From Prorocentrum cordatum (taxonomy: Eukaryota; Sar; Dinophyceae; Prorocentrales; Prorocentraceae), in the NCBI GenBank assembly GCA_963575745.1, contig CAUYUJ010020581.1, positions 16,001-80,000 on the forward strand: 64,000 nt of DNA. The letters run 5' to 3'. Made by a program: the position numbers and the translations under genes. Under the pieces are notes generated by a model. It was not told the DNA's origin, searched no databases, and saw only the letters and a program-made list of their open reading frames with translations. Below are positions 1 to 35,730 of the stretch, in pieces; position 1 is the first letter of the stretch; the number at the start of each line of letters is the position of its first letter.

Positions 1-3000
1 TTAATCTGCATTCGTGTGCAGGCGGGCTACCGGCTTCGACCCACTTCTGATACCTCTTCTTGGACGTATTGGCCAATCTCCGCAACTGATCTTTCTCTGT
101 GCCTATGGGGGATCGCGCACCCGTCATAATGACATGTGCGCCATCCTTCATGTATCTCGCGACCTGGTCCTCGGACAACGTCGTCTTGATCCAGTTCGTC
201 AACTTCTGGAGGTACGCGAGGTCACTCTGTGTGGCGGTGCTCTTACCTGTGGCGCCTACGGCCACAGTGTATTGCCAACATATATCACAGAGTGTGCCGT
301 CACCTGTGACGATACCGAGGGACAGATCTCGACCGCAATTGTTACAGAGCGGTATGGGATGCAAGATCGTCTCGGGGGCCCCTGCCGAAGTCAGGTGATC
401 GCGGGATCCCCAGCGGGTGTCCTGACCGCGAGCGAGGCTCTGACCGATCTGATTGATCGCCTCACGATTGATCTCGGTGTTTGGTCTGGAAGCGATCGAT
501 CTGCTTAAACCCTCGATCTCGATCCGAGACAACCTTTCCCCTGGCAGTCCTTTGTACTCTATCTTGACGTTGTCGGTATCCTCAGTACCGCCATGGCATA
601 CGTTCTCCTCACGAAGACGGCGAGCCTGCTTCTGCAAGGTAGCCTCGTTGTCGCCCTCCTCGCGCTTGAGTCCCGTCTGTTCAGCTATGATGCGTACCAT
701 AGTCTCCTGATCGGGAGCTGCAGACGCAACACTGCCTGGGTCCTGGGGAATATCCTGCTCAGCGCCCTCCTCTCGAGGCGCAGCAGGTGTTTCCACCAGC
801 TCTTCCCACACAGGAAACTCTGGATCACCGTATGTCGCAGTACAATTTTTACATAGGTCACGCAATGCCTGAAGTGCAGGATGGTTGTCATGGATGACTT
901 CCTTGGCAAAATCTGGTAGCTCCACAATACTATCTTTCAAGATGTTCTGGTATACTTTGGAAATCCATTGAAAGATGCCCGTGGTCGACTCCGCGATAGT
1001 CTCCGGGTCGAGGTAGTGTACCAACTTTTTGAAGAAGTGATCTGCACCACAATTGGGTAAGTCACGTGCCCACTTGTGGGTATGATTGTAGTTCAAATGA
1101 GATGACTCCGCGTTCCATGCTTTCGATCCAAATCGAATTTCAAATTGTAAATGTGACTGAATTTTGTCCATTACGATTCTGTCTGCGCCACTGTGTATCT
1201 CAATGATCTGCCTCATCTTGATCATAGGCGAATCCACCAATAGCGCCGATGTCCAACAATACACGCGGCAATCATCAGACTGTCTAATCCATCTTGAATC
1301 CTCGTCGGGGTCGTAGTCTGGATGATCAAGGAAATTCGATGGCGGATCAATGATGTTATCGAGGATGCTTGCCTCGATCTGCTCTTCTGCTTGGATGTCT
1401 GCCGAGAGGTCTGCCCTCATGTTGTCGTTCGCAGCTTTCTCATCTGCAGTAAGAACGATATTTGATATGTCCACGATTACGGTGATCAGTGGATCATGCG
1501 ATGATGCTGTACCCTGTCGAGGAATGTCGCCCGTCTGAGCGTTGTCCTCGGCAGGTGTGGCCACCAGCTCGTCTGGATCAGGTGTCCGTGGAGCGGGCCT
1601 TCTTGGTGGTGTACGCGGAATACGTGGTCTATGGATGCTAGGCATTCCAAGGTATGGTAAGCTGCCGCTAACCTTGTGCTGCAGTATGTCCTCGCTGCAA
1701 GATGTCGGGCCTTTCAGGGCAGTCTCCATCCATGTTGGATCGATGGCGTGTTCTTCGATACGAATCGGCAATGCAAATACAACGCCCTTGAGGGGCATGC
1801 TTTTGTCATTATACCAGATATTTACCCATCGTAAACCGTAGTTGAGAATAGGTACTTGTACCGCAAAGAACTTGTCGAAGATGCCGAAATGGATGATTGG
1901 ACCATATATGTGTCCCTTGGACAAGGCAATCTTGGTATTGTGATTGCCTTTGGGCCAATGGTTGTCGTAGTGGAAGCATTTGGTAGAACCCCAATTCTTA
2001 ATGACAATGAAGTCGCCCATTCGAACATCGTTAAATGCAGGACGACGATCCCAATCTTTTTGCATGATCTTTGCTGTGATTGGTCGAAGAGCTTCACGAC
2101 AATGTGATAATGCAATCAACCATTCTTTATCATCTGCTTTGTGATTGGTCTCCTGGATCATAGCACGTACTATTTGCTCGTCCAAGGCGTCCTCTGCGGA
2201 TGTACGGCCAGCAGGGGTTTCCCCCGGCCTGGCCGAGGGTGCTGATGCTGGCGTCATCCTTGGAGGCTCCATGTCTTGGTCGGGGTCGATAGGTGCCAAT
2301 CCAGGTGGGTCGTCAATAAGTTCTCCAGGAAGGCAGGCGCAAATCTCGTACTTGCTCAATGGCTCTCTGGCTGCCAATGGCGGGTAGTCCCATGGGTCGC
2401 CGTCTGGCCACAGCTGCTGGCCATGCATGTGGTGTGGTTTGAGGCGGCGAATTGCAATAATTGCCGCAGCGGGTACCACGTCCTCAGTCATGATAGCGCC
2501 CTGAGCACCCAACCAAAATCTGCAACCTGCTTTTGTGGCGATCTCCATGTGGATCACCAGCTCGACTTCGTTCTTGTAGCTGTTGAACTTGTACGATTCC
2601 ACTGAAGTATGTGGGTTCTTTTGAACGTTGTTCAAATATGTGCTAGAACTGAAGAATGCCTCAGATCGCTGCGATGGTTTATAAGTTCTGTCTCTCTGAG
2701 AATGTGGTTCAACATATCCAGGAATGATCCCTGTCTTCAGTATGTTCTTCCAGGCGCGGGATGCTGTTCCATGATGGAGATATTTGATATCTGTCCACTG
2801 TAAGCTCTCCCATCCCATGTTCCATGGCTTTGAAGATGGGTTGACACAACTGTGACCACCGACGCACCGAATAGCAATAACGCTGTTCCAGTCAAAAGTG
2901 CTGGGGTCACCTCCGTCAGGAATCGGCTTGGCGTATATCTCGATTCTGTTTTTCTGCGGGTCAATATGCTTCTGGAACGCACGAATAATGAATATCGGAT

Positions 3001-6000
3001 AGTAGTCGTTCCAATCGGTGTATCCATCATTTTCACCGTCTTTCTTGAAATGTGCCACTGCCGCTTCCATGGATGGTCCATTGTGTCTTTCTTTGCGATC
3101 TCGGAATTTCCATTGAACCATTTCTTTAAATGGTTTCCAATTGTTTGGAATATTCCAATCATTCTTTGTTGTTTTGTCCCAGATATTAATACGTCTGTCA
3201 TGAAATTGGTTGATCCAAACCTTTTTGTAGTGAATCTCATGGCGTAACATAGTCGTGATGTCTTTGCTCATGTATTTGTTTGTTCCCAGCCATTCTTCAT
3301 CAATTAGCTCAGGACCATAACGTACATCGTCGTAATGTGGTAATGGTATCCATTTCCATTCTGGGAAACAACCAGATTGTGCAATGTCAGGCGCATGAGC
3401 AATTACACTGTCATCATGCAGTAGCTGCTCGTACCACTCTTGGTTTTCGATGCAGGCAAATCCATTGGTCGCTTTCGTGCCCCGCAACATTGGGCACATG
3501 TATGGATGTTCATCTTTGACGCCATACTGTAACTTCCATTCGCGAATAGTGCATGAGTTGTCGAAGATCCCGAGCTTGCTGGTATCCTCGTGCATGGAAC
3601 GCTCACAACTGTCCTGCCATGACAATATATTCATCTCATGTGGAGAAGGCTCCTCCTCAGCAGGAGTTGCCTCCAGCTCCATTGCCTCAAGGTCGGTGCC
3701 GTCATCAGGGATCGGTACCGCCTCAGCTTTTGGGAGCTGATCTGCTGGTTGTTGTTCTGCTTTAGGCTCTGGAGTCGATGGTTGCGACGCTTTGATCGAT
3801 TGCGGTCCAGGTTGCAGTGGATCAGGCAATGGGCCTGGTGGGGCTGGCTGTGCTGTGTCATCAGCTGCCCTCCATACGGCTGTAGGGACATTAGGGTCAT
3901 GACCCAAAGCAACTCGATCCAGTGCATTCTGTTTGAAGAATGTTTTGCATGCCTCGATGTTCTTCTCGTTCTCGGCAGCTGGGCCGATGCGGTGAGAAGA
4001 CAATCTGTGTTCTTCTGCAATGAGTCTTGATTTGGTCGCATTATCGTCTCCATCCAACTCTTTGATCTGACGTAAGAATTGCTCGAATACAACCCAAGTA
4101 ACTGCATGTGCATCTTCAACCGTTTTGACGATCTTGGGTTCTAGAAGTTCATCTTTCTCAAGAGAATGCCAAGATGCCCAAGCCCCAGGGTATTCTTTGA
4201 TCAACAGCATAAGGTACTGGAATAAGTCATTGTATGCCATAACCCATGGATCATTATCAGGAAGGGTTTGGTCAGGATCGCTAGGGTCCGTTGCTGGCGT
4301 ACGTGTAGACCTTCCAGGAGTCGGCTCAGTCGCGTCGCCCGTCTCGGCAGGCAGTGATGCCGGCAATGTGCCCTCGGCACATGACGCCATCCACGCACAA
4401 TGAGCCATCTCGTTTGCCGTCTGTGTCATCAATGTTGTGAGGCTGAGGTCTCTTTTCCATTCGTTTGTCAACTTTTCTCTGAAGTCGAGGGCTGCCATGA
4501 TTTCCTTGGCCTGAGTGTAGGCCTGGTTGTCCGTGACAGAAGTCAGCAATGGCGGCCTGAATGGATATGGCTGAGAAGGAAGAGACTGTATCAATGCGCA
4601 AAAATTGCGATAGCATACTGCGTCGCAGAATTGCGTTGTCAACATTGCCATGTTATGGTTATTCTGTTTGGCGTGCCAAGCCTGTGGGGTAACCCTGTCG
4701 TACGTATCCACCCAATGGTCGGATGGAAGAACAGTGATACCACGGTTCTGCATGATAGTGATCAAGTCGCTCGTGTGGTGATCAAAGTTCGGGTGTACGC
4801 CCCATTGCGCTGCTTTTCCAGGTCCCATGACCGTGGGGCAGCGGAAATACTGCATCACATCGACAAAACGTGATACGTCCACGAGCACGTGTACGGGCAT
4901 GAGCGTCGGGACGCCGCCCTCACATTCCATCTTTTGGGGCTCGTGTACGTTGGTAGGAGCACGACTGTGATGTCGGCGCATGTCGATGGTGTTCTGTCCA
5001 GGATTAGCACATGCGATGTCGTTCGCACTCCATACTACCATGGCATTGAGTCCCCTGTGGTAGTGTCTTTGTTTTATGGATGATGGGAAATCATTGGCCC
5101 AGTATTCCCAGATGGTTTCGTTCAGCTCGCGCCACTTTTTGATGGAAGCGTTGTCGCTTTGAAACATGAGTCCTCTGGCTTCGCGGATCTTCCTGATCAT
5201 ATTGCGCTGCTCGAGAGTGTTCTCAAACTGATTGTTGAGAAGAGCGTTGATACGGCTTTCCTCTTTCTCGAAACGTTGCTTGCGTAGTTCCTCCATTCCG
5301 TATCGTACGCCCTCATAACCAGCTTCAGGCAAGAGAACGCAATCTTGACCGATCGGCGTACCATTCTGTCTGAACCATTCCCTGTAATTGCCAAAAGAGA
5401 ATGCCCACATCATAATGTCGTCGCGGATCATGGTCGACAGGTGCTCAAGAGTAGCGCCACCCATGTATTCCGCGCGGTTAAGGCACGGCATGAATAGCGG
5501 AACAAGAGCAGTATTTGATGCTTTGGCGAGGTCGATTCTCTTCTGGGCAGCGTTGAGCTCGTCGATGCCGAAAGTGGGGTACTTCTTGTGTTTTGCACCC
5601 TTAGCCCCTTTCTTCGGATGCATGATCCATGTTGAGTCCGTGTATAAGTTGGTCCATTTGTACGCATGACCCGATGGCCCAAATGCATGATGTAATAGTA
5701 GTCCCAAGTCCTCTTGTACGAGGGAGTGCCACCCATTGTCTGACAATAGGGTAGAAACCAAGCGACCACCACAGAAAGCACTGTATTTTGCGTAGTCCAA
5801 CTCGAATGGGTCCACATCATTGCCAGGAGTCATGCCAGGATCATTCGAACCCATGTGGTCAGCAGCGTCGCCGAAGAAGTCGTTGCCCTCGTTGTATGGT
5901 GTCCAACGATAGGTACGCTCTGTCTCTTGTGGATCATCCAATATCGCCACCCAACCATTCGGATGGTCGGATGGCGTTGCCACCGTCTTGGAGTTTGATC

Positions 6001-9000
6001 CGATACTTCCAAAGCCTCCGCGCGCAGTCAACCATGTAGTAAGCTTGCGGCGGAACTTCTTTGTTTGGGTAAGGTCGGAAAAAGCTCTCGTGTTGGTGAC
6101 CAAGTTATCCTCGACGATATGACCGATGTGCCCAGATGTATCCGATGTCCTGGCGATGCCAGGTGGACGAGTAGGTAGCTTGGCCATTGCACGATCAATT
6201 TTAGGAGCATAGCATGGCGTTACCAATCCATTCTGGTATACATCGGATGGTGCACTCAGACCATTGTTGTAATAGTTTTGCGTATCCGTAACGCTGTCCT
6301 CGGTGTATTGTCCCAGAACTGCACTGCCAATTTTGGACCAATCGTTGTGAATCATCATCCACTCCGTCTTCAGTATCATAATAGTAAAGTTTGACGGTGG
6401 ACATTTGCGGTCTGATCCTGGGATCGTCGCATTCAAATGATCATGTAGTCCACGAACACTATCTTGTACTGAAGGATTACGATTGAAAAGGCTGGAAATC
6501 ATACACATAGCACGCATGAAAGATAGCCACGGCGTAGCTGTGAACGTGTTGTACTCGTAGTTGGCGTTGCCGCCGACGGATCCACTCTCAGTGCTGGCCC
6601 ATTTCTTAGCCTCGACGGACGCGAAGCGGGCAAGTTCACGGATAGAAGACTCGTCGGGTACTCGAAGATCAAATTCTCCGCTCCGATCGGCACGCCGTTG
6701 ATGTATGTATATGTAACCATCTTCGGGATCACGAGGACGACCAGTTTGAGCGTGGTACGCAAAGCCCACGCGGTCATCGTCCCTGGCGTTCGGGTCGTAC
6801 TCCTTGTCGTAGCCGATGGGCCAGCCGACGAGGTTGAGCGGCTGTGCCTGATCCATCTCGTGGATGGAGGGGTCGGGATTAGAACCGATCTCACTTATGT
6901 TCGCCTCGCAAGCGGCAAACAGGATGCTTGTAAGCTTTGTAGCTCGAGTCGTAAAATTGCTGCGGTGTGAACGAATAATCAATGTCCTAACTCTCTCTGC
7001 ATCTCGTTGAGGTGAGGGAGGATGGCGAGGATGTCTACCGTGCGGTGAACGTGCGCGTGAACGAGGTGTGCGCGACGCAGTATCTGCGGCTGGTACGCCA
7101 TAGTGGTACATGCATGCACATAGTCCCTCATGGTTAGCTTGTCCAACACACTGAAATCCGCATTCTGATCCTACCTCGCCCCATCTTTCTTTTTCCGTCA
7201 GCAATATCTTGCATATTTCTGGGCATCCATTCAATTTAGGAGGTTCCGCTTCATGAGGTAAACCGTCGGGCCTCCGAGGCCCTCGTATCGGCGGACATTG
7301 TATCGGAGTAACAGGAAAAATAAGCGAGTGTTCCAAGAGGTCCTTCCAAAGGTCTGCTTTCTTGGTCTCGAAATGTTTGGTCATCATATCTGCGATCTGC
7401 TCTTTTGTTCCTACATATTTAAGCTCGATATGTTCAATTTGACATGTTTCGCATATCCAATCCAGATTGATACGATGAGTACGATGAAGATGACGAAGTG
7501 CTGGTGTACGTCCCTTTTGGACAATTTTGATAACGGCCTGGTTATCCTCCAAGACGATAAGTCGTACTTTCGGTGCACTGATCTCTGGAGCTGGCTCTGG
7601 ATCCACGTGTAGTACGGTACCTTCATGGGATATTGTACGTCTCTTTGGAGTCGTAGGCAAATCCGTATTTAGCGGTAGTTGCCTACGGCCAGGAGAAGAT
7701 CCCCGAGTAGGGGGTGCCTTGCGAGGCGATGGTTTACGCTTCTTTTTGGCTGCCAATGTAGGACACATCGCCGGGTCAACGTGTCGATGGCAACTCAGGC
7801 ATGTATTCTTCTCTTTGCATGTTTTGGCAACTCCCACCACGGCTTCCCAGAATGATAGTAGTGGTAACCCTTCCAGTCGTAGTGCGGAATCGAGAGCAAC
7901 GATCTCCGATTCAGTAGATGAATGTGAAACAACCGTTTGTTTCTTACATACAGCGTTGACTGGAAAGAACGTATTGGGTCCAACAAGCGCAGCAAAAACA
8001 CCAGTAGTGGATTTGGATGATGTAATGCAATCAGCGAACGAGGCGTCAGTGAACAGCATGATGGATAACTTGTCTGATGAATCGCCTATCCATCCGTGTA
8101 AGCAGTGTGTACGCGTCGTTTTGATGTAGCATATCAACCGATGTAGACGTTTGTCACATGTAGTATTCCATTTGGTAATTTCTCTGGCCAACATACATAC
8201 CGGATGTAGAAGATCGAAACGACAGCAACGTGCCAAGTACAGGATCTTCATTAGTACACTTGCCGCGTCCTGGCCGAGAACGCCCTCGTCTGAATAGTCG
8301 GACTCAGTGAAGGAGGTGTCCTCGATGCCAGGGGTCTCTGCGTCGGGTAGATCATGGTATGTGGCGGGTATGGTATTGGTAGAAGTTGTGTCGATCGATT
8401 TTGCTGGGCTGGATGATCTTGTCCGTGCGTTGAGCACACTAGTAGGTCTGGCGACCGACCCGGAGGAAGATGGCGATTTGGATCGCGAAGCCCTCGGCGA
8501 GTCGGATCGTTTCCGACGTGACCCTTTTCCCTGGGCGCGCTTGGAGGCGCATTCCAGGTACCGCTCAATGCACTGATCTGTAAAACCAAGCATGTCATGT
8601 CGAATACCACGAACGTGTTTTGCCGTATTGTATTCTTTCTCGTTGTGTGCAGGTAGCATAGGGCGTATTGTGGACATTCTTTTGTCGAAGATGCTCTGCG
8701 GTACGTCATATGCTTGTTGTCCACAACCCAAATATTGTGAGTATGGAGTAGGTGGATCCAAATCGATACCGCTTTTACGAATATAATCCCAGCCAGTCTG
8801 TAGATTATGAGCTGGGCCGGCCAATTTGAAATCGTCCACATATACTGAAAGTATCAGTCCCAGTTTGTTGTGTCTCCATACACATTCCCATCCTGAAATA
8901 GGCTCGAAACCGACGCTTTCCAAGCATGTACGGCATTTTCGTTCCCAAAAGACACCTGCAAGAGGGTGTCCGTATAGTGCCAATCGCAATCGGCACACTG

Positions 9001-10435
9001 GGTTATTGTATTTTGACCATGATGTCGGTTGTCGCCATTTAGGTATAGTAATCCAAGTATCAACTGGATCAATTCGTCCGTCGCCGTATAATAATGCCTG
9101 CGTGTAAGCTCCAGGTGCGTCACTTTGCTCTCCCGCATATTGCGGTAATAATGCAGTAGCATCGCAAAGTTTGGAAGCCTCTATATGCGAAGCACTGGAA
9201 GCGGCGTCGGCGAATATGGCGGCCAAACCAGTTTCATCTTTGCCTGTATTGCCCTGAACCACCACTCTGCCCTTGAATTTACGTAGATCAGGAGGAAGTT
9301 CTTCATGTTTGACTGAAGATAATTCCAATATATTGAAGAAATGCACCTTTGTTCCATTGCGAATAGCTTGTGACTCAATGTCAGCTTTTTCTGCAACAGT
9401 CTCCAACATCCATGTTTGTTTCATTTCCAATCTCTCGTATTCTTTTCGTAGGGCTTCTTGTGCACGTGGTTCTGCGGCAACTTCTTTCTTACTCAGGTTT
9501 CTGGTAACTAATGCTGGGCGTGACCATGTCGAATCTGGTATTTTATCTCTGTGTGCCGGCATGTAGTTGGTCTCACGTGGCATGGTTGGTATTGCTACCG
9601 ACTGGGTGAACTTGCGTATGAGCGGGTTCAAAGTCCCAAAGTCGGTTCCTTCATTATCCACAAATACCAAAGCACGTTCTTCTCCATCGTGCTGTTGTGG
9701 TAGTTGACGGTAGTATAGTACCGTGGTAATGTCACGTGGCCCACCAGGTAATTTGGCATACAGTATTTCTTTGTTTGTCACGCCTTTGACATTCTCGTCG
9801 CGGATGACGTCACCATTGTCAGTGTCGTATGTAATCCGTCGTTCCACAGTATTCCATGTGGGTCCGCCTGATGTAGTAGTACGGAAATTGTTGACCTGTT
9901 TATCCTGTCTTGTCCACACTCGCAATGCAGCACGATCACGAATTTCACGGGCTCGTTTAACGTCGTTGGCGTAATCGATCTCTTTCTTTTGCTGTCCACG
10001 GGAAAGTGTTTTCCAATGCTCGGGAAGAACGTGATCAGGACGTGTAGTAGTCTGCACACGTGTCGCGCGTCCACGAACCACCATTTTGCCGTCTGGCGTT
10101 ATTTTTGGAAGCTCATAAAACTGAATCGTGCCTGTCCACGGCTCGCTCAGCTCCCTGTGGTCGTTGGCGCTAACACCATCCCAAACATCTCGGAAGTTAC
10201 TTTCGCCCTCGAAAGTAGAAGTCGTTTTGAAATCTCGTGTCACGTCGAGTTGGTCAACAGGTACTGGTATATTCATGACGTCGTCCGTTGGGATGAATAG
10301 TTTCTTTCTTGGGGTACGAATGTGTCTGATGACGCAATATCCACGCTGTTCCCAGTAGTCTGGCTCCGGCGCTGGTGCAGCAACTTCAGAAGCCGATGTC
10401 TGGATATCAACAGCGTTATCTTCCGTTGTCATCAT
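1..10435 (-). CDS. Copia-type pol ORF2: reverse transcriptase-RNase H with giant C-terminal extension carrying a Tpt1/KptA-like domain (partial, runs off the left edge)
   Basis: The minus-strand frame starting at the ATG at 10435-10433 stays open to the window edge, at least 3478 codons. Residues ~320-600 are copia-type reverse transcriptase: KGRVVVQGN near 390, LALYGHPLAGVFWE near 480, catalytic YVDDF at ~532. RNase H follows at ~740-1040 (FTDASFAD, STESEIVALDSA, LEDNQAVIKIV, KEQIADMMTKHFE), split from the RT by a basic Ser/Arg linker. Ordinary copia pol ends here. This ORF continues for ~2400 residues. Around 2515-2665 it has IRCVGGHS, then YLHHGTASRAW, RSEAFFSSS and GAIMTEDVVPAAAII, in the order and spacing of the Tpt1/KptA family (IRA-QGHS, HGT, R-HLS, vLT-G), which removes 2'-phosphates from spliced tRNA using NAD+. 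Near the edge (260-345) is a zinc ribbon, CNNCG...CDIC. Whether the extension is element-encoded or a captured gene is unknown. No stop or frameshift was seen. Confidence 0.85.
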   Translation of the reverse strand, partial: MMTTEDNAVDIQTSASEVAAPAPEPDYWEQRGYCVIRHIRTPRKKLFIPTDDVMNIPVPVDQLDVTRDFKTTSTFEGESNFRDVWDGVSANDHRELSEPWTGTIQFYELPKITPDGKMVVRGRATRVQTTTRPDHVLPEHWKTLSRGQQKKEIDYANDVKRAREIRDRAALRVWTRQDKQVNNFRTTTSGGPTWNTVERRITYDTDNGDVIRDENVKGVTNKEILYAKLPGGPRDITTVLYYRQLPQQHDGEERALVFVDNEGTDFGTLNPLIRKFTQSVAIPTMPRETNYMPAHRDKIPDSTWSRPALVTRNLSKKEVAAEPRAQEALRKEYERLEMKQTWMLETVAEKADIESQAIRNGTKVHFFNILELSSVKHEELPPDLRKFKGRVVVQGNTGKDETGLAAIFADAASSASHIEASKLCDATALLPQYAGEQSDAPGAYTQALLYGDGRIDPVDTWITIPKWRQPTSWSKYNNPVCRLRLALYGHPLAGVFWERKCRTCLESVGFEPISGWECVWRHNKLGLILSVYVDDFKLAGPAHNLQTGWDYIRKSGIDLDPPTPYSQYLGCGQQAYDVPQSIFDKRMSTIRPMLPAHNEKEYNTAKHVRGIRHDMLGFTDQCIERYLECASKRAQGKGSRRKRSDSPRASRSKSPSSSGSVARPTSVLNARTRSSSPAKSIDTTSTNTIPATYHDLPDAETPGIEDTSFTESDYSDEGVLGQDAASVLMKILYLARCCRFDLLHPVCMLAREITKWNTTCDKRLHRLICYIKTTRTHCLHGWIGDSSDKLSIMLFTDASFADCITSSKSTTGVFAALVGPNTFFPVNAVCKKQTVVSHSSTESEIVALDSALRLEGLPLLSFWEAVVGVAKTCKEKNTCLSCHRHVDPAMCPTLAAKKKRKPSPRKAPPTRGSSPGRRQLPLNTDLPTTPKRRTISHEGTVLHVDPEPAPEISAPKVRLIVLEDNQAVIKIVQKGRTPALRHLHRTHRINLDWICETCQIEHIELKYVGTKEQIADMMTKHFETKKADLWKDLLEHSLIFPVTPIQCPPIRGPRRPDGLPHEAEPPKLNGCPEICKILLTEKERWGEVGSECGFQCVGQANHEGLCACMYHYGVPAADTASRTPRSRARSPHGRHPRHPPSPQRDAERVRTLIIRSHRSNFTTRATKLTSILFAACEANISEIGSNPDPSIHEMDQAQPLNLVGWPIGYDKEYDPNARDDDRVGFAYHAQTGRPRDPEDGYIYIHQRRADRSGEFDLRVPDESSIRELARFASVEAKKWASTESGSVGGNANYEYNTFTATPWLSFMRAMCMISSLFNRNPSVQDSVRGLHDHLNATIPGSDRKCPPSNFTIMILKTEWMMIHNDWSKIGSAVLGQYTEDSVTDTQNYYNNGLSAPSDVYQNGLVTPCYAPKIDRAMAKLPTRPPGIARTSDTSGHIGHIVEDNLVTNTRAFSDLTQTKKFRRKLTTWLTARGGFGSIGSNSKTVATPSDHPNGWVAILDDPQETERTYRWTPYNEGNDFFGDAADHMGSNDPGMTPGNDVDPFELDYAKYSAFCGGRLVSTLLSDNGWHSLVQEDLGLLLHHAFGPSGHAYKWTNLYTDSTWIMHPKKGAKGAKHKKYPTFGIDELNAAQKRIDLAKASNTALVPLFMPCLNRAEYMGGATLEHLSTMIRDDIMMWAFSFGNYREWFRQNGTPIGQDCVLLPEAGYEGVRYGMEELRKQRFEKEESRINALLNNQFENTLEQRNMIRKIREARGLMFQSDNASIKKWRELNETIWEYWANDFPSSIKQRHYHRGLNAMVVWSANDIACANPGQNTIDMRRHHSRAPTNVHEPQKMECEGGVPTLMPVHVLVDVSRFVDVMQYFRCPTVMGPGKAAQWGVHPNFDHHTSDLITIMQNRGITVLPSDHWVDTYDRVTPQAWHAKQNNHNMAMLTTQFCDAVCYRNFCALIQSLPSQPYPFRPPLLTSVTDNQAYTQAKEIMAALDFREKLTNEWKRDLSLTTLMTQTANEMAHCAWMASCAEGTLPASLPAETGDATEPTPGRSTRTPATDPSDPDQTLPDNDPWVMAYNDLFQYLMLLIKEYPGAWASWHSLEKDELLEPKIVKTVEDAHAVTWVVFEQFLRQIKELDGDDNATKSRLIAEEHRLSSHRIGPAAENEKNIEACKTFFKQNALDRVALGHDPNVPTAVWRAADDTAQPAPPGPLPDPLQPGPQSIKASQPSTPEPKAEQQPADQLPKAEAVPIPDDGTDLEAMELEATPAEEEPSPHEMNILSWQDSCERSMHEDTSKLGIFDNSCTIREWKLQYGVKDEHPYMCPMLRGTKATNGFACIENQEWYEQLLHDDSVIAHAPDIAQSGCFPEWKWIPLPHYDDVRYGPELIDEEWLGTNKYMSKDITTMLRHEIHYKKVWINQFHDRRINIWDKTTKNDWNIPNNWKPFKEMVQWKFRDRKERHNGPSMEAAVAHFKKDGENDGYTDWNDYYPIFIIRAFQKHIDPQKNRIEIYAKPIPDGGDPSTFDWNSVIAIRCVGGHSCVNPSSKPWNMGWESLQWTDIKYLHHGTASRAWKNILKTGIIPGYVEPHSQRDRTYKPSQRSEAFFSSSTYLNNVQKNPHTSVESYKFNSYKNEVELVIHMEIATKAGCRFWLGAQGAIMTEDVVPAAAIIAIRRLKPHHMHGQQLWPDGDPWDYPPLAAREPLSKYEICACLPGELIDDPPGLAPIDPDQDMEPPRMTPASAPSARPGETPAGRTSAEDALDEQIVRAMIQETNHKADDKEWLIALSHCREALRPITAKIMQKDWDRRPAFNDVRMGDFIVIKNWGSTKCFHYDNHWPKGNHNTKIALSKGHIYGPIIHFGIFDKFFAVQVPILNYGLRWVNIWYNDKSMPLKGVVFALPIRIEEHAIDPTWMETALKGPTSCSEDILQHKVSGSLPYLGMPSIHRPRIPRTPPRRPAPRTPDPDELVATPAEDNAQTGDIPRQGTASSHDPLITVIVDISNIVLTADEKAANDNMRADLSADIQAEEQIEASILDNIIDPPSNFLDHPDYDPDEDSRWIRQSDDCRVYCWTSALLVDSPMIKMRQIIEIHSGADRIVMDKIQSHLQFEIRFGSKAWNAESSHLNYNHTHKWARDLPNCGADHFFKKLVHYLDPETIAESTTGIFQWISKVYQNILKDSIVELPDFAKEVIHDNHPALQALRDLCKNCTATYGDPEFPVWEELVETPAAPREEGAEQDIPQDPGSVASAAPDQETMVRIIAEQTGLKREEGDNEATLQKQARRLREENVCHGGTEDTDNVKIEYKGLPGERLSRIEIEGLSRSIASRPNTEINREAINQIGQSLARGQDTRWGSRDHLTSAGAPETILHPIPLCNNCGRDLSLGIVTGDGTLCDICWQYTVAVGATGKSTATQSDLAYLQKLTNWIKTTLSEDQVARYMKDGAHVIMTGARSPIGTEKDQLRRLANTSKKRYQKWVEAGSPPAHECRL

Positions 10436-10522
10436 AGACGGATCATCCCATCCTTTATTTAGGGCAAGAAAGTGGAGGGTCAGGCATTGGCTTGTCACCC
10501 AAGGGGCGAGAAGTAGATGCCT
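10433..10522 (-). other. gag-pol junction: ORF overlap with a +1 frame change
   Basis: The pol frame is open from 10522, so it overlaps the end of ORF1 (stop 10457-10455) by about 67 nt and lies in the +1 frame. The first in-frame pol ATG pair starts at 10435, 19 nt past the ORF1 stop. A two-codon ATG-GGA-TGA lies in between. Ty1 also uses a +1 shift, but its CTTAGGC slip site is not present. Either a different +1 slip or reinitiation would be needed. Confidence 0.6.
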
Positions 10523-13500
10523 TCACCTCGTCGTGCGCCTCAGGGTTATGATGTCGTAGAGTACCATCTTTCACGGGGTAGGTGAACTTGCCATCAGGGA
10601 TGATGATGTCTTTGACTCTGTGCACATGGCACAGATCACCATCAGGGTTCTTGGCGTATGTAGCCGTGTCCAAAACAAGGTAGTCACCTGACCATCGTCC
10701 ACCAGAGTGTAAGTGGTATCCCATGAATAACCCTTCCCGAGTGTTTTCTTTAAATTTTGCAGTCTCGTTGTTAATCTCGGGGTTGAGGCATTTCCAAAAT
10801 ATCCGAGCACCGAATGGTATGCAGTGCCCAGGAAAGCTTTCGCCAAATCTTATTTCATGAGCTGTCTTTTCTGCATGCTCCTCTTTGAGGGCAGCAACGC
10901 CCGTGGATGTATGCACAAAGTTGTGTCCACAGCAAAAGGCTTGCATGGCCTCTTTCCACCATTCGTGTCCCAGACCAGACATATGTAACACAGCTCTGGT
11001 ACCAAGGATGACAATTTTGACAACCCGCTCAATCAATCCATTTGTCTGTGGACGATGTGGCGTACTCGTGTCGTGTCTCCATCCCAATTGGCGGCAAGCT
11101 TTCTGAAGCTCTCCAGAATTGTCTGTGTAGATATGCTTCACCTCATCGTTCGCGGCGATGAACTGTTGAAAGGATGCCTTTGTAGTAGCTGCGTCTTTGT
11201 GTAGCGCTGGGTAGGCCATGAAGATGCCAGTATATCTGTCAAGGACAACAAGTGCATATTTGTCGCCATGTTTGTCCGCGGCATCGTCTTTGGCCAGTAC
11301 GATATGGTCAGCAGTTAGAGCTTCACCGAACTTCTTCGGGACAAAAGCTTCGTAGGCGTTATCCTCTTCGGTGGGGTCTGCCGGTGGATGTGGTTTGCGC
11401 TGTCGTCTACACGGGGCATTCTGTGCCATCGTACGAGAACAGATCTCACAGTCGGGATGTTTTGGGCTGTGAGTCATGTAATGCATCGGGTCGATCGGTT
11501 TCTTTTGTCTGTTGGGCAGAACTCGATCGTTGTCTGGATGCGTTCGCGTGGGTGTCTCTGTCGGTATGTCGTTGTCTGCTTGAGCTATATCGAACCCCCC
11601 GCATTGTGGAGGAGAACACTGCATCTGAGACGTAGGCGAGTCGGTGGTCGTGTCCACGTTGGTCTCGTCTGTTCTTGTGTCGGGAGGTTCTTCGACCGTG
11701 ATGGTCCGTGCTCCTCCTCCCTCTCCGACATGTGGTCTCTTGGGGCAGGTCCCTATGTGGGGTCGTAGCTCGTCTGCAGTGGTTGGTTGCTCTGTAGTTT
11801 TGCAGCACCAACAAGTGTCGTTACAGCGGGCGGATGAACGCTTTCGCTGACGACGGCGGGGTGCTGACGAAGTGCATAAACGTGGTGGTGGTATCCGTGT
11901 TAAGTCGTCAAGTCGTAACTCTGGCACTCGATTGTTGACTGGAATCTTATACCATTGGCCCCCCGGATCCTGAAGCATGTAGCCCAGCTCAGGATCCCAA
12001 AGCTGTCGAAAGCCATCAACCTCGATCAATTTTCCAACTGATAGTAATGATGGGCAGTCTGGTAAAGCAAGGGCTGAACTATGCAGTCCAACTTCGGGTA
12101 GCCGTATGTCGTAGTGCTCGTTGACGGTACGATCACCATTTGCAGTTTCCAGAATATGCTCTTCGCGAATAGATATGCGATCCGACTCGGTCTGCGTAAG
12201 TTCATGTTTTCCCTGAATATGATGGGCAGAACCACTGTCAAGAACCCAAGACCTTGTCAATGCTGCAGTCGAGCGTGGAGTGTCGACTTGCTTTGTCGTT
12301 GTTGTCGTCTGGGCAGTCTTTGATGACTGCTTGACAGTGTCGTCATGCTTTCGGATCGCAGTTGGTGTGGCCACCGACTCTTTGTTGTGTCGGTAGTCGT
12401 ACAGTTCGTCGTACCATAGTTGTGCCTCTTTTTGACATTCTCGTAAGGCCTCTGCACTATCATCCCACCATTTTTGTGGTAATGGATCTGGTACTTTGAC
12501 GATGTCACCCTCATTCGGCAGCTCTTTCCACCTGTCCAGTCTGGCTCTGCCAGATATGGTATGGAAATAGTAGTCCACGTTGCGTACGTCGAAGCGTATC
12601 CGACGACGTATCTTGGTAGATGTCGTTGTGGCCTTGGTGTTGGCCATGAGGGTCTTGTCGCGGATGACGTAGCTGCGGTCTGAACGGCGTGAATGTCTAA
12701 AGTTGGCAGGAGAACGTGCTCTAGTGTTGGGTGAACCACGGGACGATCCGCGGCTCGGATACCGCTTGCCACGTCCTTTGTCACTGCCATATGATCGATC
12801 ACGGCCGCGTGGACTGCCACGTCCGCCGCCACGATTGTCTCGTCCTCGGGAGGTAGATCTCGAAGATCTGTCGTAACGACTTCTCGATTGGCTGCGAGAG
12901 TCTTGGGACCTCCTGGATGTGGAACGGGATCGGTCGTATTGGCGTCGGTTGTCACGTCCCTGTCGTGAATCGCTTGCGTAGCGAAACCCCCCGCGTTGTG
13001 AAGACCGTTGGCTTCCTGATCCGCGGGATGGTGATCGGCCACGGCTGTCCTGGCTGGAAGTCCGTGGTCGACTCGGGCTTCGTTCAGGAGTCTTTGCACC
13101 AGGTGCGAGATGAGCGTATTTGCATTTGTCGCCTTTTGTGCACTTGTTCTGTGCGAAATCCTTGCACTGTGCGACGTGCGGGTAGTTACACTTATCACCT
13201 CTGGTACATGTGTTGCGCTTGGCAAAATCGAAGCAGAACGGCCTTGATGCTGGCTTCTTGTGATTCGCAGGAGTGGACATACTACGGCGGGGGTTGCCAC
13301 CAGCCGTTGATGTTCTGGAAGATTTGTTGTTCTTCCAATCCCTGGAATATGTATGTAAAGCCTTGCACCGTTCACCATTGCGACAATTGCCTTTCTTCCA
13401 TGCAACGCACACGTTAACCTGAGATCGTGTCTCGTGTTCGTACCGTAGCTTGTTTTGATTCTTCTCCAATTGTTTAATCTCCAGTATGTCCAGGACACGC

Positions 13501-15965
13501 TGTCGAAGCCAACCGTAGGTACGATTCGGGTCGCTCATCTTCATGCGCTGGTACTCGTACATGTCTTGTTTCATCCATGCATGTCTACGAATCTGTGTGC
13601 GGAATAGCGATTCCAATATCTTTGGATCGGGTACTTCTCGGCATTCCAAGAGTAAGGCGTCCCAATCGGTAATGAAACGTTGCAAATCTTCGTCTCTCAT
13701 CCTCAGTTCTTTAAGGCGCTCGAAATCGTGCAGGTCGTCGTCGACGTCTGTCACTTTGTAGGACTGTAGGATATGCCAGTATATCTGGCGTCCTTTGAGC
13801 ATGCGTCCTGCTTTGTGCTCTCTGGTCTCGATGAGCCTGATTTGGTAGCGTAAGTCTGAGGATAAGATGTCGCTCAGAGCGGTTGCGAGTTTGCAATCGA
13901 TGCTCTCAAAGTCTCCACTGTCTTGTAAATCCTCGAATGTACATTCGGGCTGTTCTGCCACGCATAGGAAGGCGTATGCTTTGGATGGTCGCCCTGAGGC
14001 GGCCCCGAAGTTCTTCCGCACTCTTTGCTGCCACTCCAGCAGCTGCGTGATCTTAGGCAAGACAGGTACACGGACGGTGTCTGACTCCTTGATAGGCGTC
14101 GTAGTATGGACCGACACCGCAGACGCTGGCTGCGAGGGTATCGGTGCACCGTCGATGGTTGGTTCTGTGCGCACAGAAGACACATGGCGTGTCTGTGCAG
14201 AAGCTGCCGCGGAGGCTGCTCCTGGAGATGTGCGTCGTTGCTGTCCTGCTGAAGCTTGTGGTGCTTCGGCGGACACTGCCGTCGGCCTGTGCGGGTCGGC
14301 TGCAGGTCGAAGGTGAATGTTGGTGTCGTTAGTGTGGTCGATCAGCTGATTCGTCCAGCTCGTCATGTCTTCTTGTATTTGACCCACCTTTTGGCGTGTA
14401 TACTCATCAGTATCCCGAGACCGTTGGGAATACCGATCAAGCCGATGCTCGCATGCTCGGAGACGGGCGCTTTGTGCCTCCACCTCGCTTTCCAGACGTG
14501 CGAGATAACTCTCAACACGTACCTTCTCAGTATCTCTTTCATGAATAACCTGGGAGAGCTCTAACTGCGTGTGGTCCGCCGCCTTCTCAACCTCCTGCAA
14601 CCTGTCAGTGAGGCGGGCGAAATCGTAAACCGTGGGAGGAGAATCCAGCTGATCAGTCTGGGCTCGTCCGACACGCAACTCTGCCAGGGCGTCCTGTACA
14701 CCAGGGAAACGCTGCTCTATGTCAGAGATCCGGTTAGCGAGTGGCTGCACGACAGCGTTGGTCGCATCAAGCCTTTGAGTGATGACTCTCTCAGTACGCT
14801 GCAACATGTCGATCAGGTTCGACGAGTTTGTGTGTGCTTCGGTACGAAGCGTCGCCGTAGTGTGGTCTAGGTAAGATCGAAGATCATTGATCTGAGACTG
14901 AACGTCGCCGAGGTCTGTGGCCTCGGTTGGGGTTGGTCGGTTACGGAGCTGGTCGTGGATCTCATCGTGTAAAATCCTGACCGCAGAAATGCCTGTGTCG
15001 CGTACGATCACAAGTTGTTGCTCCATCTGCGCGAGATAGTTGCGCAGGTTCTCGACCATCGCCGTTCGTTCACCTGAGTGTGACACCTCACGATCAACCT
15101 GGTACTGCAGTTCTCCTATGATGCGTCTATCTTCGGCGATCCTGGAATCGATGATCCCTAAGGCGCCGTCAAGATCGCGGCGCATGGCTGCAGTATCCGT
15201 GGCATTCGTCTGAACGCTCTGTAGTAGTCCAGAGTATTGGCTGGACACGAAGGTTTCAACCTGGTCTCTAAGCTCAGCTATGTCACCTGCGGCGGACGTC
15301 TCCGCCAGCTGGTCGTCTGAGATGGAGAGGTGGGGAGCGTCAGCTTCCCTGTGTCCCCTGTCGCGGGGAGTGCATGGCCTCTGAGAGGCAGTGCGCGGGC
15401 TCGACCTGCTCTCGCCGTATGGGCCTGGGGCTCCACGGCGGTTGCGCGCGGACGAGCTGCGACTCGGACCATGTGTGTGTGATGTCTCATCCGATGATAC
15501 CTTGGGGTACCGCGTCTGTGGCTGTGCCGACACTGGTCTACTGAGTTCCTCGAAGGTAGCTACGTGCTCCGCCACAGGGACGGTCGCAGGGCTGGGGGTT
15601 CCAGCACCTGAGGTCCATCGGCGGTTAGCGCGGAAGCGCCCTGGAGTATCGAGACCGGTAAGGCTTTCGCCTGACGCGGTTGGGATTGCTCCCGACGGGG
15701 AAGGGGAGGGAGGATCAAAGGTCGGCGTGTGAAACTCCTTCCTTCCTGTTCCTACTCCTTCTCCTGTCCCCCCGCGGGCGGCGCTGCGGCGAAGTTCAGC
15801 AGCTAGACGCGCCTCGGGTCCTCGGGAGCTGGGGGGGGTATCGGGGACACCAACACAGTCCGCACTAATGCTCTCCAACTCGTCACCGAGCCGTCGCACC
15901 GTGGGAGAGCTTGGACGCGAAGCCCCAATGGAACCCTTACGGCGCATGCGCCGAAGCGGCTCCAT
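10455..15965 (-). CDS. Copia-type ORF1: gag-protease-integrase polyprotein
   Basis: About 1836 residues from the ATG at 15965-15963. The frame is open upstream to 16124, but only with a TTG start. Residues 1-200 are Ser/Pro/Arg-rich, then a long Gln/Glu/Arg coiled-coil-like stretch. A copia-type capsid segment (FERLKELRMRDEDLQRF, then YGWLRQRVLDILE) precedes three CCCH zinc fingers at ~852, 907 and 930 (for example CRNGERCKALH) and an SR/RG-rich tract. The aspartic protease signature is SWVLDSGSAHH at ~1240. The integrase has an H-H-C-C finger (HYMTHSPKHPDCEIC, ~1500) and a D-D-E core: ADHIV, YTDNSGE, then NGLIERVV. The order protease-integrase before reverse transcriptase defines Ty1/copia (Pseudoviridae). 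Reverse transcriptase and RNase H are in the next ORF, in the +1 frame. No stop interrupts it, so it could be functional. Confidence 0.9.
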   Translation of the reverse strand: MEPLRRMRRKGSIGASRPSSPTVRRLGDELESISADCVGVPDTPPSSRGPEARLAAELRRSAARGGTGEGVGTGRKEFHTPTFDPPSPSPSGAIPTASGESLTGLDTPGRFRANRRWTSGAGTPSPATVPVAEHVATFEELSRPVSAQPQTRYPKVSSDETSHTHGPSRSSSARNRRGAPGPYGESRSSPRTASQRPCTPRDRGHREADAPHLSISDDQLAETSAAGDIAELRDQVETFVSSQYSGLLQSVQTNATDTAAMRRDLDGALGIIDSRIAEDRRIIGELQYQVDREVSHSGERTAMVENLRNYLAQMEQQLVIVRDTGISAVRILHDEIHDQLRNRPTPTEATDLGDVQSQINDLRSYLDHTTATLRTEAHTNSSNLIDMLQRTERVITQRLDATNAVVQPLANRISDIEQRFPGVQDALAELRVGRAQTDQLDSPPTVYDFARLTDRLQEVEKAADHTQLELSQVIHERDTEKVRVESYLARLESEVEAQSARLRACEHRLDRYSQRSRDTDEYTRQKVGQIQEDMTSWTNQLIDHTNDTNIHLRPAADPHRPTAVSAEAPQASAGQQRRTSPGAASAAASAQTRHVSSVRTEPTIDGAPIPSQPASAVSVHTTTPIKESDTVRVPVLPKITQLLEWQQRVRKNFGAASGRPSKAYAFLCVAEQPECTFEDLQDSGDFESIDCKLATALSDILSSDLRYQIRLIETREHKAGRMLKGRQIYWHILQSYKVTDVDDDLHDFERLKELRMRDEDLQRFITDWDALLLECREVPDPKILESLFRTQIRRHAWMKQDMYEYQRMKMSDPNRTYGWLRQRVLDILEIKQLEKNQNKLRYEHETRSQVNVCVAWKKGNCRNGERCKALHTYSRDWKNNKSSRTSTAGGNPRRSMSTPANHKKPASRPFCFDFAKRNTCTRGDKCNYPHVAQCKDFAQNKCTKGDKCKYAHLAPGAKTPERSPSRPRTSSQDSRGRSPSRGSGSQRSSQRGGFRYASDSRQGRDNRRQYDRSRSTSRRSQDSRSQSRSRYDRSSRSTSRGRDNRGGGRGSPRGRDRSYGSDKGRGKRYPSRGSSRGSPNTRARSPANFRHSRRSDRSYVIRDKTLMANTKATTTSTKIRRRIRFDVRNVDYYFHTISGRARLDRWKELPNEGDIVKVPDPLPQKWWDDSAEALRECQKEAQLWYDELYDYRHNKESVATPTAIRKHDDTVKQSSKTAQTTTTTKQVDTPRSTAALTRSWVLDSGSAHHIQGKHELTQTESDRISIREEHILETANGDRTVNEHYDIRLPEVGLHSSALALPDCPSLLSVGKLIEVDGFRQLWDPELGYMLQDPGGQWYKIPVNNRVPELRLDDLTRIPPPRLCTSSAPRRRQRKRSSARCNDTCWCCKTTEQPTTADELRPHIGTCPKRPHVGEGGGARTITVEEPPDTRTDETNVDTTTDSPTSQMQCSPPQCGGFDIAQADNDIPTETPTRTHPDNDRVLPNRQKKPIDPMHYMTHSPKHPDCEICSRTMAQNAPCRRQRKPHPPADPTEEDNAYEAFVPKKFGEALTADHIVLAKDDAADKHGDKYALVVLDRYTGIFMAYPALHKDAATTKASFQQFIAANDEVKHIYTDNSGELQKACRQLGWRHDTSTPHRPQTNGLIERVVKIVILGTRAVLHMSGLGHEWWKEAMQAFCCGHNFVHTSTGVAALKEEHAEKTAHEIRFGESFPGHCIPFGARIFWKCLNPEINNETAKFKENTREGLFMGYHLHSGGRWSGDYLVLDTATYAKNPDGDLCHVHRVKDIIIPDGKFTYPVKDGTLRHHNPEAHDEVKASTSRPLGDKPMPDPPLSCPK

Positions 15966-17557
<1,592 letters not shown>

Positions 17558-20582: not shown

Positions 20583-21461
20583 GGCCGCCAAGTCGATTCT
20601 GATCGGCGGCGAGCGAAGGGCTCTGGGAGTCCTGGCCGGCGCCCCCCCTCCCGCGGCCGCCTCCGCCCCCTGCTCCTCCGCCGCCACCGCCGGCTCTGTG
20701 AGCAAGCTCGCAGCCCGCTCAGCCCCAAAGGGGCCCGGGCCATCGCACGAACGAGCGTCCCATGCCCACTCCCGCCCCTCACCTCGGAGATCGGCGGCCA
20801 GCGAGGGGGAGAAGTGAGAAGGAGAAGGCCTTCTCAGAAGGCGGCGGGAGTTCTCAAAAGCCCTCGCGCCTCCCCAAAGTCTTCTATACCTTCGGGGAAG
20901 GCTTAGAGAACTTCTCAGGAGGCCAGGGGACTTCCGAGCCTTCAGCGAAGGCTCGCCCCTTCTCACTTCCCCCCGTGCTCGCCGCCGATCTGAGCAGTCG
21001 TGATCGGCCACGACGCATCACGCGTCATCAGAGCAATCGTGGTGACGATGCTGGGCAACAACAAGGAGCCTCATATTCGCAGTGACCGTCAACAAGAGAA
21101 CCCGCAAAGGGAGCATCCGAATGATCCCTGCTACGCAAGACCGCGCTAACGTCGATGTTGGGACTCTATGTGCTCGTTGCGACACCGAACTCAGAACAAA
21201 TTGCCGGACATCGCGAACCACAAGTTCCTACATCTCACATCCGTACGCGAATGCACCGAGCAGAAACGACACAGTGAGCTGCAGGAGAGCATGAAAGACG
21301 CTGTCCTGCAATAGGCTTGGCCACCAAACAATCCCGACTGTAATGCCGAGACCCGCGTCGCCGTTGCCCGCATCGCTGCTCGCGCGTCCACGATGCGAGC
21401 CCTGACCTCCGCTGTCTCCCAGACAGCTTTTTCCTCCGCTTCCCAGTCTGGCCTGTACAAG
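20583..21461 (+). repeat. Left 879-bp LTR-like direct repeat
   Basis: Starts GGCCGCCAAGTCG and ends GGCCTGTACAAG. Its partner lies 2730 bp to the right. The differences seen are near 20862 and 20875 and at about 21345 (C versus T in the right copy). It includes a foldback at 20789-20990. Confidence 0.95.
20789..20990. repeat. Foldback (inverted repeat) inside the LTR-like repeat
   Basis: The arm at 20789-20822 (GATCGGCGGC..., then GAAGTGAGAAGG) is the imperfect reverse complement of 20957-20990 (CCTTCTCACTTCC..., then GCCGCCGATC). The ~130-bp interior also contains short inverted words (AGTTCTC/GAGAACT). The same structure recurs at 23519-23720. It could be an RNA structure of the element or a nested short inverted-repeat element. 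Confidence 0.7.
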
Positions 21462-21534
21462 GTTGCGGCACTATGTATTCCAAGGTTGCGAGCGTGAGCT
21501 CCAGAAGCAATATGCAGTCCGCAAGCGGTCAAAC

Positions 21535-22995: not shown

Positions 22996-23312
22996 TGGAG
23001 GTTGGTTGGGTGCGGCGGAGGCTGTATCTATTTATCTGCAATGCCAGGCAGGCGACGATACGAATTCACCGGCGGGTTGTTGAGCTAATTTGCCAAATCC
23101 GTCGTAACATTTTGGCGTCCTGCCCTGGTTTTCAGACTCCCCCCATGCCCGGCAGTAGGCATTTTGGATCAGGGTGGCGCTTACCGCGCCCCAGGCCCAG
23201 CAGCTTAGCATAGCGTCTGACTGCTGCTCTCCAGTAGTTCTGGAGAGACCCGAGTCCAGTGGAGAAACATTCACATCTCGTTTGATCTCGTTGAATCAAT
23301 TCTCAGTGCTCA
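22996..23312 (+). other. 3' untranslated segment of the Penelope-like element
   Basis: 317 bp between the RT stop and the right direct repeat. No further conserved domain, including GIY-YIG, could be seen in any frame. Confidence 0.5.
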
Positions 23313-24191
23313 GGCCGCCAAGTCGATTCTGATCGGCGGCGAGCGAAGGGCTCTGGGAGTCCTGGCCGGCGCCCCCCCTCCCGCGGCCGCCTCCGCCCCC
23401 TGCTCCTCCGCCGCCACCGCCGGCTCTGTGAGCAAGCTCGCAGCCCGCTCAGCCCCAAAGGGGCCCGGGCCATCGCACGAACGAGCGTCCCATGCCCACT
23501 CCCGCCCCTCACCTCGGAGATCGGCGGCCAGCGAGGGGGAGAAGTGAGAAGGAGAAGGCCTTCTCAGAAGGCGGCGGGAGTTCTCAAAAGCTCTCGCGCC
23601 TCCCAAAAGTCTTCTATACCTTCGGGGAAGGCTTAGAGAACTTCTCAGGAGGCCAGGGGACTTCCGAGCCTTCAGCGAAGGCTCGCCCCTTCTCACTTCC
23701 CCCCGTGCTCGCCGCCGATCTGAGCAGTCGTGATCGGCCACGACGCATCACGCGTCATCAGAGCAATCGTGGTGACGATGCTGGGCAACAACAAGGAGCC
23801 TCATATTCGCAGTGACCGTCAACAAGAGAACCCGCAAAGGGAGCATCCGAATGATCCCTGCTACGCAAGACCGCGCTAACGTCGATGTTGGGACTCTATG
23901 TGCTCGTTGCGACACCGAACTCAGAACAAATTGCCGGACATCGCGAACCACAAGTTCCTACATCTCACATCCGTACGCGAATGCACCGAGCAGAAACGAC
24001 ACAGTGAGCTGCAGGAGAGCATGAAAGACGCTGTCCTGCAATAGGCTTGGCCACCAAACAATCCCGACTGTAATGCCGAGACCTGCGTCGCCGTTGCCCG
24101 CATCGCTGCTCGCGCGTCCACGATGCGAGCCCTGACCTCCGCTGTCTCCCAGACAGCTTTTTCCTCCGCTTCCCAGTCTGGCCTGTACAAG
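23313..24191 (+). repeat. Right 879-bp LTR-like direct repeat
   Basis: Near-identical copy of 20583-21461, with the foldback conserved at 23519-23720. Confidence 0.95.
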
Positions 24192-24339
24192 CTCCCGGAG
24201 AACGGGGCGGGACGGGAATTCGGCGCGCAGACGCGCGCGGGCACGGGCAGGAGCGAGAACCAGCAGGCGGGAAAGGATGCCCGCAGCATTGCTGCGGACA
24301 CATACGAAAAGACATCTTGCTGTGTAGTGCCCCGCAGCT

Positions 24340-35696: not shown

Positions 35697-35730
35697 AGAA
35701 GAAACTGGGAGACCACTCAGGTACGGAGGG

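What the first reader, a model, noticed from the sequence alone, without database searches (positions are those of the whole stretch)
1..10435. Copia pol fused to a >2400-residue extension with a Tpt1/KptA-like domain
One uninterrupted frame joins copia RT-RNase H (YVDDF at 8828-8842) to a long extension. At ~2460-2890 this has IRCVGGHS, LHHGT and TEDVVPAAAII, the ordered hallmarks of tRNA 2'-phosphotransferases. All motifs lie in the same frame, and no stop was seen over at least 3478 codons. Ordinary copia pol is about a third of this length. An RNA-repair-like or ADP-ribosyl-transfer domain carried by a retrotransposon would be a new combination: it could act on tRNA primers, splice junctions or host defence.
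Basis: partly seen in the sequence, partly recalled or inferred. Interest (0 to 1): 0.87.

Follow-up and report, generated by a model that had tools for sequence, protein, structure and literature searches.

The report
Jumping gene carrying RNA-repair enzyme domain
A many-copy jumping gene of the copia type, in what looks like a dinoflagellate genome, carries a domain related to the RNA-repair enzyme Tpt1/KptA in the same giant protein as its reverse transcriptase, which links RNA repair chemistry to a mobile element.

Summary
One frame runs from copia RT-RNase H to the window's left end without a stop and stops 3,749 codons after position 10435 on the flanking contig. The Tpt1/KptA-like part is real but remote: PF01885 scores 20.9 bits on the whole frame (below its cut-off of 26) and 27.7 on the cut piece. 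The catalytic Arg-His-Arg-Arg tetrad and HGT are kept. The window copy is an 18-kb LTR element with a 5-bp target duplication and one difference in 197 LTR columns. The fusion recurs: 66 of 107 scored RT copies have the KptA piece downstream at 4,666-5,201 nt. In 2 of 2 other copies read across the INT-RT junction the frame is continuous; the window copy is interrupted there. A second LTR family in the genome carries a clearer KptA domain (90 bits) on the gag side. Most likely an element-encoded NAD-dependent RNA-end enzyme; activity and substrate are untested. It is a new variant of a known kind (domain capture by an LTR element); my paper searches listed no earlier report.

The parts
16226..16230 (.). 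5-bp target-site duplication GAATC next to the 5' LTR (the other copy lies on the contig outside the window)
   Evidence: read by eye
16030..16225 (-). 5' LTR, 196 bp, TGTGTGTGG...CCATACACA; 3' LTR at contig C19732:14244-14439, outside the window
   Evidence: 197 aligned columns, 1 mismatch, last G shared by chance of the boundary
16018..16029 (-). putative primer-binding site GGTTATCAGCCC, anticodon-arm-like
   Evidence: same 12 bases in 13 of 13 other copies fetched; 11 of 12 to a recalled initiator tRNA-Met arm; at most 10 of 12 to 20 host tRNAs sampled; host initiator tRNA not identified
10455..15965 (-). Gag-INT reading frame from its first ATG; interrupted from the RT frame in this copy
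13110..13409 (-). CCCH zinc fingers
   Evidence: PF18345, PF00642
12219..12248 (-). WVLDSGSAHH, copia-protease-like motif
   Evidence: read by eye, motif recalled; place; no Pfam match
11049..11276 (-). integrase core
   Evidence: PF00665 29.3 bits, below its cut-off 32.6, E 1.1e-6
8723..9280 (-). copia reverse transcriptase, YVDDF at 8828-8842
   Evidence: PF07727 25.4 bits, below its cut-off 31.6, E 1.3e-5
7370..8059 (-). RNase H (MLFTDASFADC ... ADMMTKHF)
   Evidence: read by eye; places; no Pfam match
1..7318 (-). extension after RNase H, continuing outside the window to the stop
2441..3271 (-). Tpt1/KptA-like domain, residues 2389-2665 of the frame
3239..3244 (-). tetrad residues Arg2398-His2399 (LRH)
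2867..2869 (-). tetrad Arg2523 (IRCVGGHS)
2765..2773 (-). HGT 2555-2557 (NAD adenosine contact in Tpt1)
2666..2668 (-). tetrad Arg2590

Best explanation
This is a mobile Ty1/copia-type LTR retrotransposon family whose polyprotein (5,541-5,671 aa in the ten longest copies of like length) carries a derived Tpt1/KptA domain after RNase H. The domain is an NAD-using enzyme of the element that acts on 2'-phosphates or phosphate ends of RNA, so that cleaved or damaged RNA can serve in reverse transcription. Shown: LTRs, target duplication, dispersed copies, continuous frame in copies read, profile match, kept catalytic residues, fewer amino-acid-changing than silent shared polymorphisms. Inferred: enzyme activity, substrate, place of action. 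I give about 0.93 to the identity part and about 0.4 to the RNA-end-healing role; the single figure below is for the two together.
For: PF01885 27.7 bits on the cut piece; 18.8-20.1 bits against 6.2 for the best of 2,000 shuffles, 23.1 against 8.2 with another profile; PHROG RNA 2'-phosphotransferase E 6.5e-4. Arg-His-Arg-Arg tetrad and HGT kept in the window and in 30 of 30 copies examined. RT-KptA pairing at 66 of 107 loci. LTRs and target duplication. Shared-polymorphism pN/pS 0.18 in the KptA core, 0.31 in both flanks. A second LTR family with a full-length KptA match of 90 bits. KptA domains are embedded in some +RNA virus polyproteins, read as RNA repair (PMC9503650, passages).
Against: Remote match: below cut-off on the whole frame, NCBIfam KptA models only E 0.08-0.17, branch length over 8 in the tree. 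VH after the fourth tetrad residue and the NAD-cage Arg are not kept; in Runella Tpt1 the Arg-to-Ala change is barely viable in yeast (PMC6333775 section 14). The KptA copies for pN/pS were ranked by KptA protein score, which biases the ratio down. The model that gave the Tpt1 fold used KptA rows; without them no usable model. No expression or activity data.
Confidence: 0.5

Rival explanations
1. The domain has shifted from phosphate removal to ADP-ribosylation: it marks RNA or cDNA ends, or another target, with ADP-ribose to protect element nucleic acid or to hinder host enzymes.
For: Tpt1 homologues ADP-ribosylate 5'-phosphate ends of RNA and ssDNA (PMC8883491, passages). Alanine at the NAD-cage Arg of Runella Tpt1 makes the ADP-ribosylated RNA intermediate accumulate (PMC6333775); that Arg is not recognisable in the window domain nor in family B, while three host-type domains keep an Arg there.
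Against: The full tetrad needed for phosphate transfer is kept. The alignment at the cage Arg is uncertain in the window domain, which has a nearby Lys.
Confidence: 0.2
2. Primer healing: the element primes from a tRNA half cut in the anticodon loop, and the domain removes the terminal 2'-phosphate so that the half can prime.
For: The 12 bases after the LTR are complementary, 11 of 12, to a recalled initiator tRNA-Met anticodon arm and are the same in 13 of 13 other copies fetched. [quoted passage not shown]
Against: Family B, with a clearer KptA, has TGGTAGCGGAGC, a conventional-looking 3'-end site. The host initiator tRNA was not found (pattern search unanswered, last). Several of 20 sampled tRNA arms match 9-10 of 12.
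Confidence: 0.12
3. Passenger: a captured host or viral piece with no use to the element, decaying.
For: Remote match, two conserved features lost; singleton pN/pS of 0.46 in the core.
Against: Shared pN/pS 0.18 (biased) and 0.31 in flanks; 86 of 94 scored copies without a stop; tetrad and HGT in 30 of 30 copies; a second family also carries KptA.
Confidence: 0.15
4. Artefact: chance similarity or an assembly fusion.
For: Whole-frame Pfam score below cut-off; no homologue in two protein-database searches.
Against: 66 of 107 RT loci paired with KptA, 35 at exactly 4,761 nt; best of 2,000 shuffles far below the piece.
Confidence: 0.03

Closest known systems
Ty1/copia LTR retrotransposons
   Same: order Gag-INT-RT-RNase H, LTRs of TG..CA form, 5-bp target duplication, many dispersed copies
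   Different: a 2,709-residue extension after RNase H (residues 1041-3749) with a Tpt1-like domain; total about 5,670 aa in the longest like-sized copies
Tpt1/KptA RNA 2'-phosphotransferases (PF01885)
   Same: tetrad, HGT and, in a model built with KptA rows, the two-lobe fold
   Different: embedded in a retroelement polyprotein, long inserts, VH and cage Arg not kept
DNMT-bearing retrotransposons of Symbiodinium and Klebsormidium (PMC5890265, passages)
   Same: an enzyme gene built into a retroelement polyprotein, also in dinoflagellates
   Different: DNA methyltransferase, in LINE, DIRS and Gypsy types; the paper says Symbiodinium Copia lacks a DNMT
+RNA viruses with a KptA domain in the polyprotein (PMC9503650, passages)
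   Same: KptA embedded in a polyprotein of an RNA-based replicator
   Different: no reverse transcriptase element; sequences not compared here
Sireviruses and other LTR elements with an extra ORF after pol (recalled)
   Same: extra coding region between RNase H and 3' LTR
   Different: theirs is env-like or unknown; not compared here

Membership tests
Tpt1/KptA (PF01885) | profile match over the curated cut-off | tested here: inconclusive
   27.7 against 26 bits on the cut piece, 20.9 on the whole frame; NCBIfam models far below cut-off
Tpt1/KptA (PF01885) | Arg-His-Arg-Arg tetrad | tested here: met
   R2398, H2399, R2523, R2590 in the alignment, 30 of 30 copies; definition from PMC6333775
Tpt1/KptA (PF01885) | HGT motif | tested here: met
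   H2555-G2556-T2557, 30 of 30 copies
Tpt1/KptA (PF01885) | NAD-cage arginine (Runella Arg137) | tested here: inconclusive
   no Arg at the aligned place; alignment there is weak and a Lys lies near
Tpt1/KptA (PF01885) | RNA lobe plus NAD lobe fold | tested here: inconclusive
Tpt1/KptA (PF01885) | NAD-dependent 2'-phosphate removal | not testable with these tools
   needs protein
Ty1/copia LTR retrotransposon | INT before RT, RVT_2-type RT, RNase H | tested here: met
   PF00665 in ORF1 and PF07727 in ORF2, both below cut-off but at E 1e-6 and 1e-5; RNase H by eye
Ty1/copia LTR retrotransposon | LTRs and target-site duplication | tested here: met
Ty1/copia LTR retrotransposon | dispersed copies | tested here: met
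   94 KptA and 107 RT scored matches; 10 printed outer flanks all differ
Half-tRNA-primed copia elements (Drosophila copia, Ty5; recalled) | primer site complementary to the initiator tRNA-Met anticodon arm | tested here: inconclusive
   11 of 12 to a recalled arm; host initiator tRNA not obtained

The most novel reading that the evidence does not exclude
Tpt1 was taken up at least twice by LTR elements of one host lineage, at two different places of the polyprotein, and both element enzymes lost the same NAD-cage arginine, turning them into RNA-end or nucleic-acid ADP-ribosyltransferases that serve retrotransposition or disarm host RNA surveillance.
Probability: 0.15. Interest if true: 0.9.

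Novelty: new variant of a known kind. Interest (0 to 1): 0.77.

Why it matters
A retroelement with its own RNA-repair-type, NAD-dependent enzyme would tie reverse transcription to RNA end chemistry, so far described for phages and a few RNA viruses. Two KptA-bearing families in one genome make the question testable: does the enzyme act on primer, template or host RNA? It would also add an RNA enzyme to the DNA methyltransferases already known as cargo of dinoflagellate retroelements.

Tried and rejected
Protein-database searches with the KptA region found nothing (261 candidates, none at E 1e-3; 804 candidates, none at 0.1); this shows only that no detectable relative of fitting length is held. 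Viral contigs gave no relative of the RT or KptA piece. A PDB sequence search with the KptA piece gave two chance matches; searches with the 1,001-aa extension piece and with the other RT-like ORF gave only weak matches (E 0.14 or worse). Pfam on extension pieces other than KptA gave nothing over cut-off. Single-sequence AlphaFold2 was unusable. The plasmid tblastn gave no match.

The reading that ORF1 and ORF2 are separate frames joined by programmed frameshifting was dropped: in 2 of 2 other copies read there the frame is continuous. The primer-healing reading was put low because family B has a conventional-looking primer site. A tree of 26 KptA domains did not place the window's domain (13 of 23 inner branches open, long-branch warning), so independent capture is not shown. 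Family B is LTR-bounded, but Pfam found no integrase in its ORF2 piece and no RT or RNase H in two further pieces; those parts are by eye, helped by 31% identity over 166 columns to the window's ORF2 just before RT.

Selection counts. KptA: 30 of 94 copies, those given as loci, ranked by KptA protein score. Flanks: 24 of 30 each after dropping copies under 95% colinear identity. Family B: 15 of 23 for KptA, 4 and 9 of 23 for its flanks, after a 90% filter. For the KptA profile I took 60 of 80 loci, dropped 3 with stops, added 7 others and kept 54 under 80% identity. Alignment A2 holds 51 KptA rows of my choice.

Full report
WHAT WAS CHECKED. The window is C19732:16001-80000 of a genome of 4.13 Gb in 21,875 contigs. 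On the flank the frame stops 3,749 codons after 10435, and the 3' LTR lies at contig 14244-14439. The 5' LTR is window 16030-16225, with one difference in 197 aligned columns and GAATC on both outer sides. The element is about 18 kb.

HOST. Its size fits the dinoflagellate Prorocentrum cordatum, about 4.15 Gbp in the abstract start of PMC10449503 (search listing), though a table row in PMC11453091 (passages) gives 4,750 and 59.7, which I take as Mb and G+C; window G+C is 60.1%. This is an inference.

IS IT A Tpt1/KptA DOMAIN? PF01885 gives 20.9 bits (E 4e-4, cut-off 26) on the whole frame and 27.7 bits (E 3.4e-6) on the 449-aa piece. PHROG 5470, RNA 2'-phosphotransferase, gives E 6.5e-4; NCBIfam KptA models reach only E 0.08 and 0.17. 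A tblastn of the piece against the phage records with the limit at E 10 gave 8 records. Seven are Erwinia phage records of four phages, matched at one gene that 4 of the 7 records call RNA 2'-phosphotransferase and 3 call hypothetical. The eighth is an unrelated Pseudomonas phage gene. E-values are 2-7 for the seven and 3 for the eighth, so none is significant alone. A profile of 54 KptA proteins scores the piece 18.8 bits, a tighter cut 20.1 and the whole frame 13.7; the best of 2,000 shuffles scores 6.2, and no other stretch of the frame is in the top 12 rows. A second profile with host-type and family B domains gives 23.1 against 8.2.

IS THE FUSION REAL ELSEWHERE? The KptA piece has 94 scored matches (1,771 first-look candidates) at 96-100%, 86 of 94 without a stop. 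The RT piece has 107 (4,546 candidates). Of the 107 RT copies, 66 have a listed KptA match downstream on the same strand at 4,666-5,201 nt, 35 at exactly 4,761. For 41 none is listed, and 28 of 94 KptA copies have no listed RT; both lists are capped, so these say little. Ten of 94 copies have open frames of 5,541-5,671 aa and one 7,081. In the two read at the INT-RT junction (C19770, C1598) the frame is continuous; the window copy is interrupted there. 13 of 13 copies fetched by offset have the LTR, 12 of them at 98-99% and one at 90%, with the same 12 bases after it. The 10 whose outer flank was printed sit in different flanks.

SELECTION. Polymorphisms shared by two or more copies give pN/pS 0.18 in the KptA core (11 silent, 8 changing), 0.21 in the whole piece and 0.40 in the 125 residues before the core (3 and 5). 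Singletons give 0.46, 0.32 and 0.21 (30 copies ranked by KptA score, hence biased). The 1.5-kb flanks give 0.31 and 0.31 shared, 0.40 and 0.62 singleton (24 of 30 copies each). Family B KptA gives 0.23 shared and 0.29 singleton (15 of 23). This fits constraint in the replicating lineage but is not a clean test.

A SECOND FAMILY. PF01885 has 150 scored matches in the genome (2,877 candidates). The seven best (96-186 bits) look like host-type genes or copies of them; the other 143 score 71-91.5 bits in frames of 287-4,482 aa. I examined 23 of these as loci and read one further, C16964. It has LTRs of 255 bp at 98.8%. A 2,941-aa ORF carries a CCHC knuckle (18.4 bits, below cut-off), KptA (90.3 bits, profile 4-177) and a RING-like motif by eye. 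A following ORF has an integrase-like motif by eye, and a further frame has HVDDI and an RNase-H-like end by eye. Pfam confirms no integrase, RT or RNase H there; 166 columns at 31% match the window's ORF2 before RT. KptA there lies on the gag side, not after RNase H. The two KptA domains are not significantly similar by BLASTP, and the tree is unresolved. Two captures, or one capture with rearrangement and fast change, would both fit.

HOW IT MAY WORK. Tpt1 moves a 2'-phosphate from RNA to NAD (PMC6333775). Tpt1 homologues also ADP-ribosylate 5'-phosphate ends of RNA and ssDNA (PMC8883491, passages). KptA occurs in a few +RNA virus polyproteins and in jumbo phages, read as RNA repair (PMC9503650, passages). 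The most economical reading is an element-encoded RNA-end enzyme. The primer-healing variant rests on a recalled tRNA arm; the host tRNA search did not complete (last), and family B does not share the site type.

COMPARISON AND NOVELTY. Retroelements with captured enzymes are known, in dinoflagellates too (DNMTs; PMC5890265, passages; review PMC6338049, part 1 of 4). Searches for KptA or Tpt1 with transposon or retrotransposon, with dinoflagellate and for dinoflagellate LTR elements listed no paper that reports this, judged by titles, abstract starts and passages read. They cover only the held open-licence library and, in capped listings, only the rows shown. Verdict: a real, many-copy variant of a known kind.

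Noticed in passing
20583-24194: Two direct repeats (first 300 nt 99% alike, visibly continuing for about 880 nt) flank a 510-aa ORF (21463-22995 +) with RT-like motifs (FDVRDFF, YCRYKDDILI) by eye and no Pfam match; perhaps a Penelope-like or small LTR element.
   Followed up: partly
L130, L184, L185, L188 (C16964:186549-209256): Second LTR family with a clear KptA domain on the gag side; other scored matches of this kind are spread over many contigs.
   Followed up: partly
L121, L122, L125: Host-type Tpt1/KptA genes or gene copies of the same genome, which keep an Arg at the NAD-cage place that neither element family shows.
   Followed up: partly
30807-38916: Long minus-strand ORFs of 2,000 and 1,061 aa; Pfam gives none over cut-off (best E 0.057), with 222- and 321-nt tandem repeats at 37661-38494.
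   Followed up: no
44624-45349: Tandem array of 151 nt, 4.8 copies, 98% matches, with long G runs.
   Followed up: no
G000:C19152: Dense tRNA cluster: 25 of the 62 scored tRNA matches lie on this contig.
   Followed up: no
1-2296 and 3646-7303: The rest of the extension (residues about 1040-2264 and 2712 on) looks globular in parts and has no Pfam match over cut-off; a CxxC-type zinc-ribbon-like CNNCGRD lies at 326-346.
   Followed up: partly
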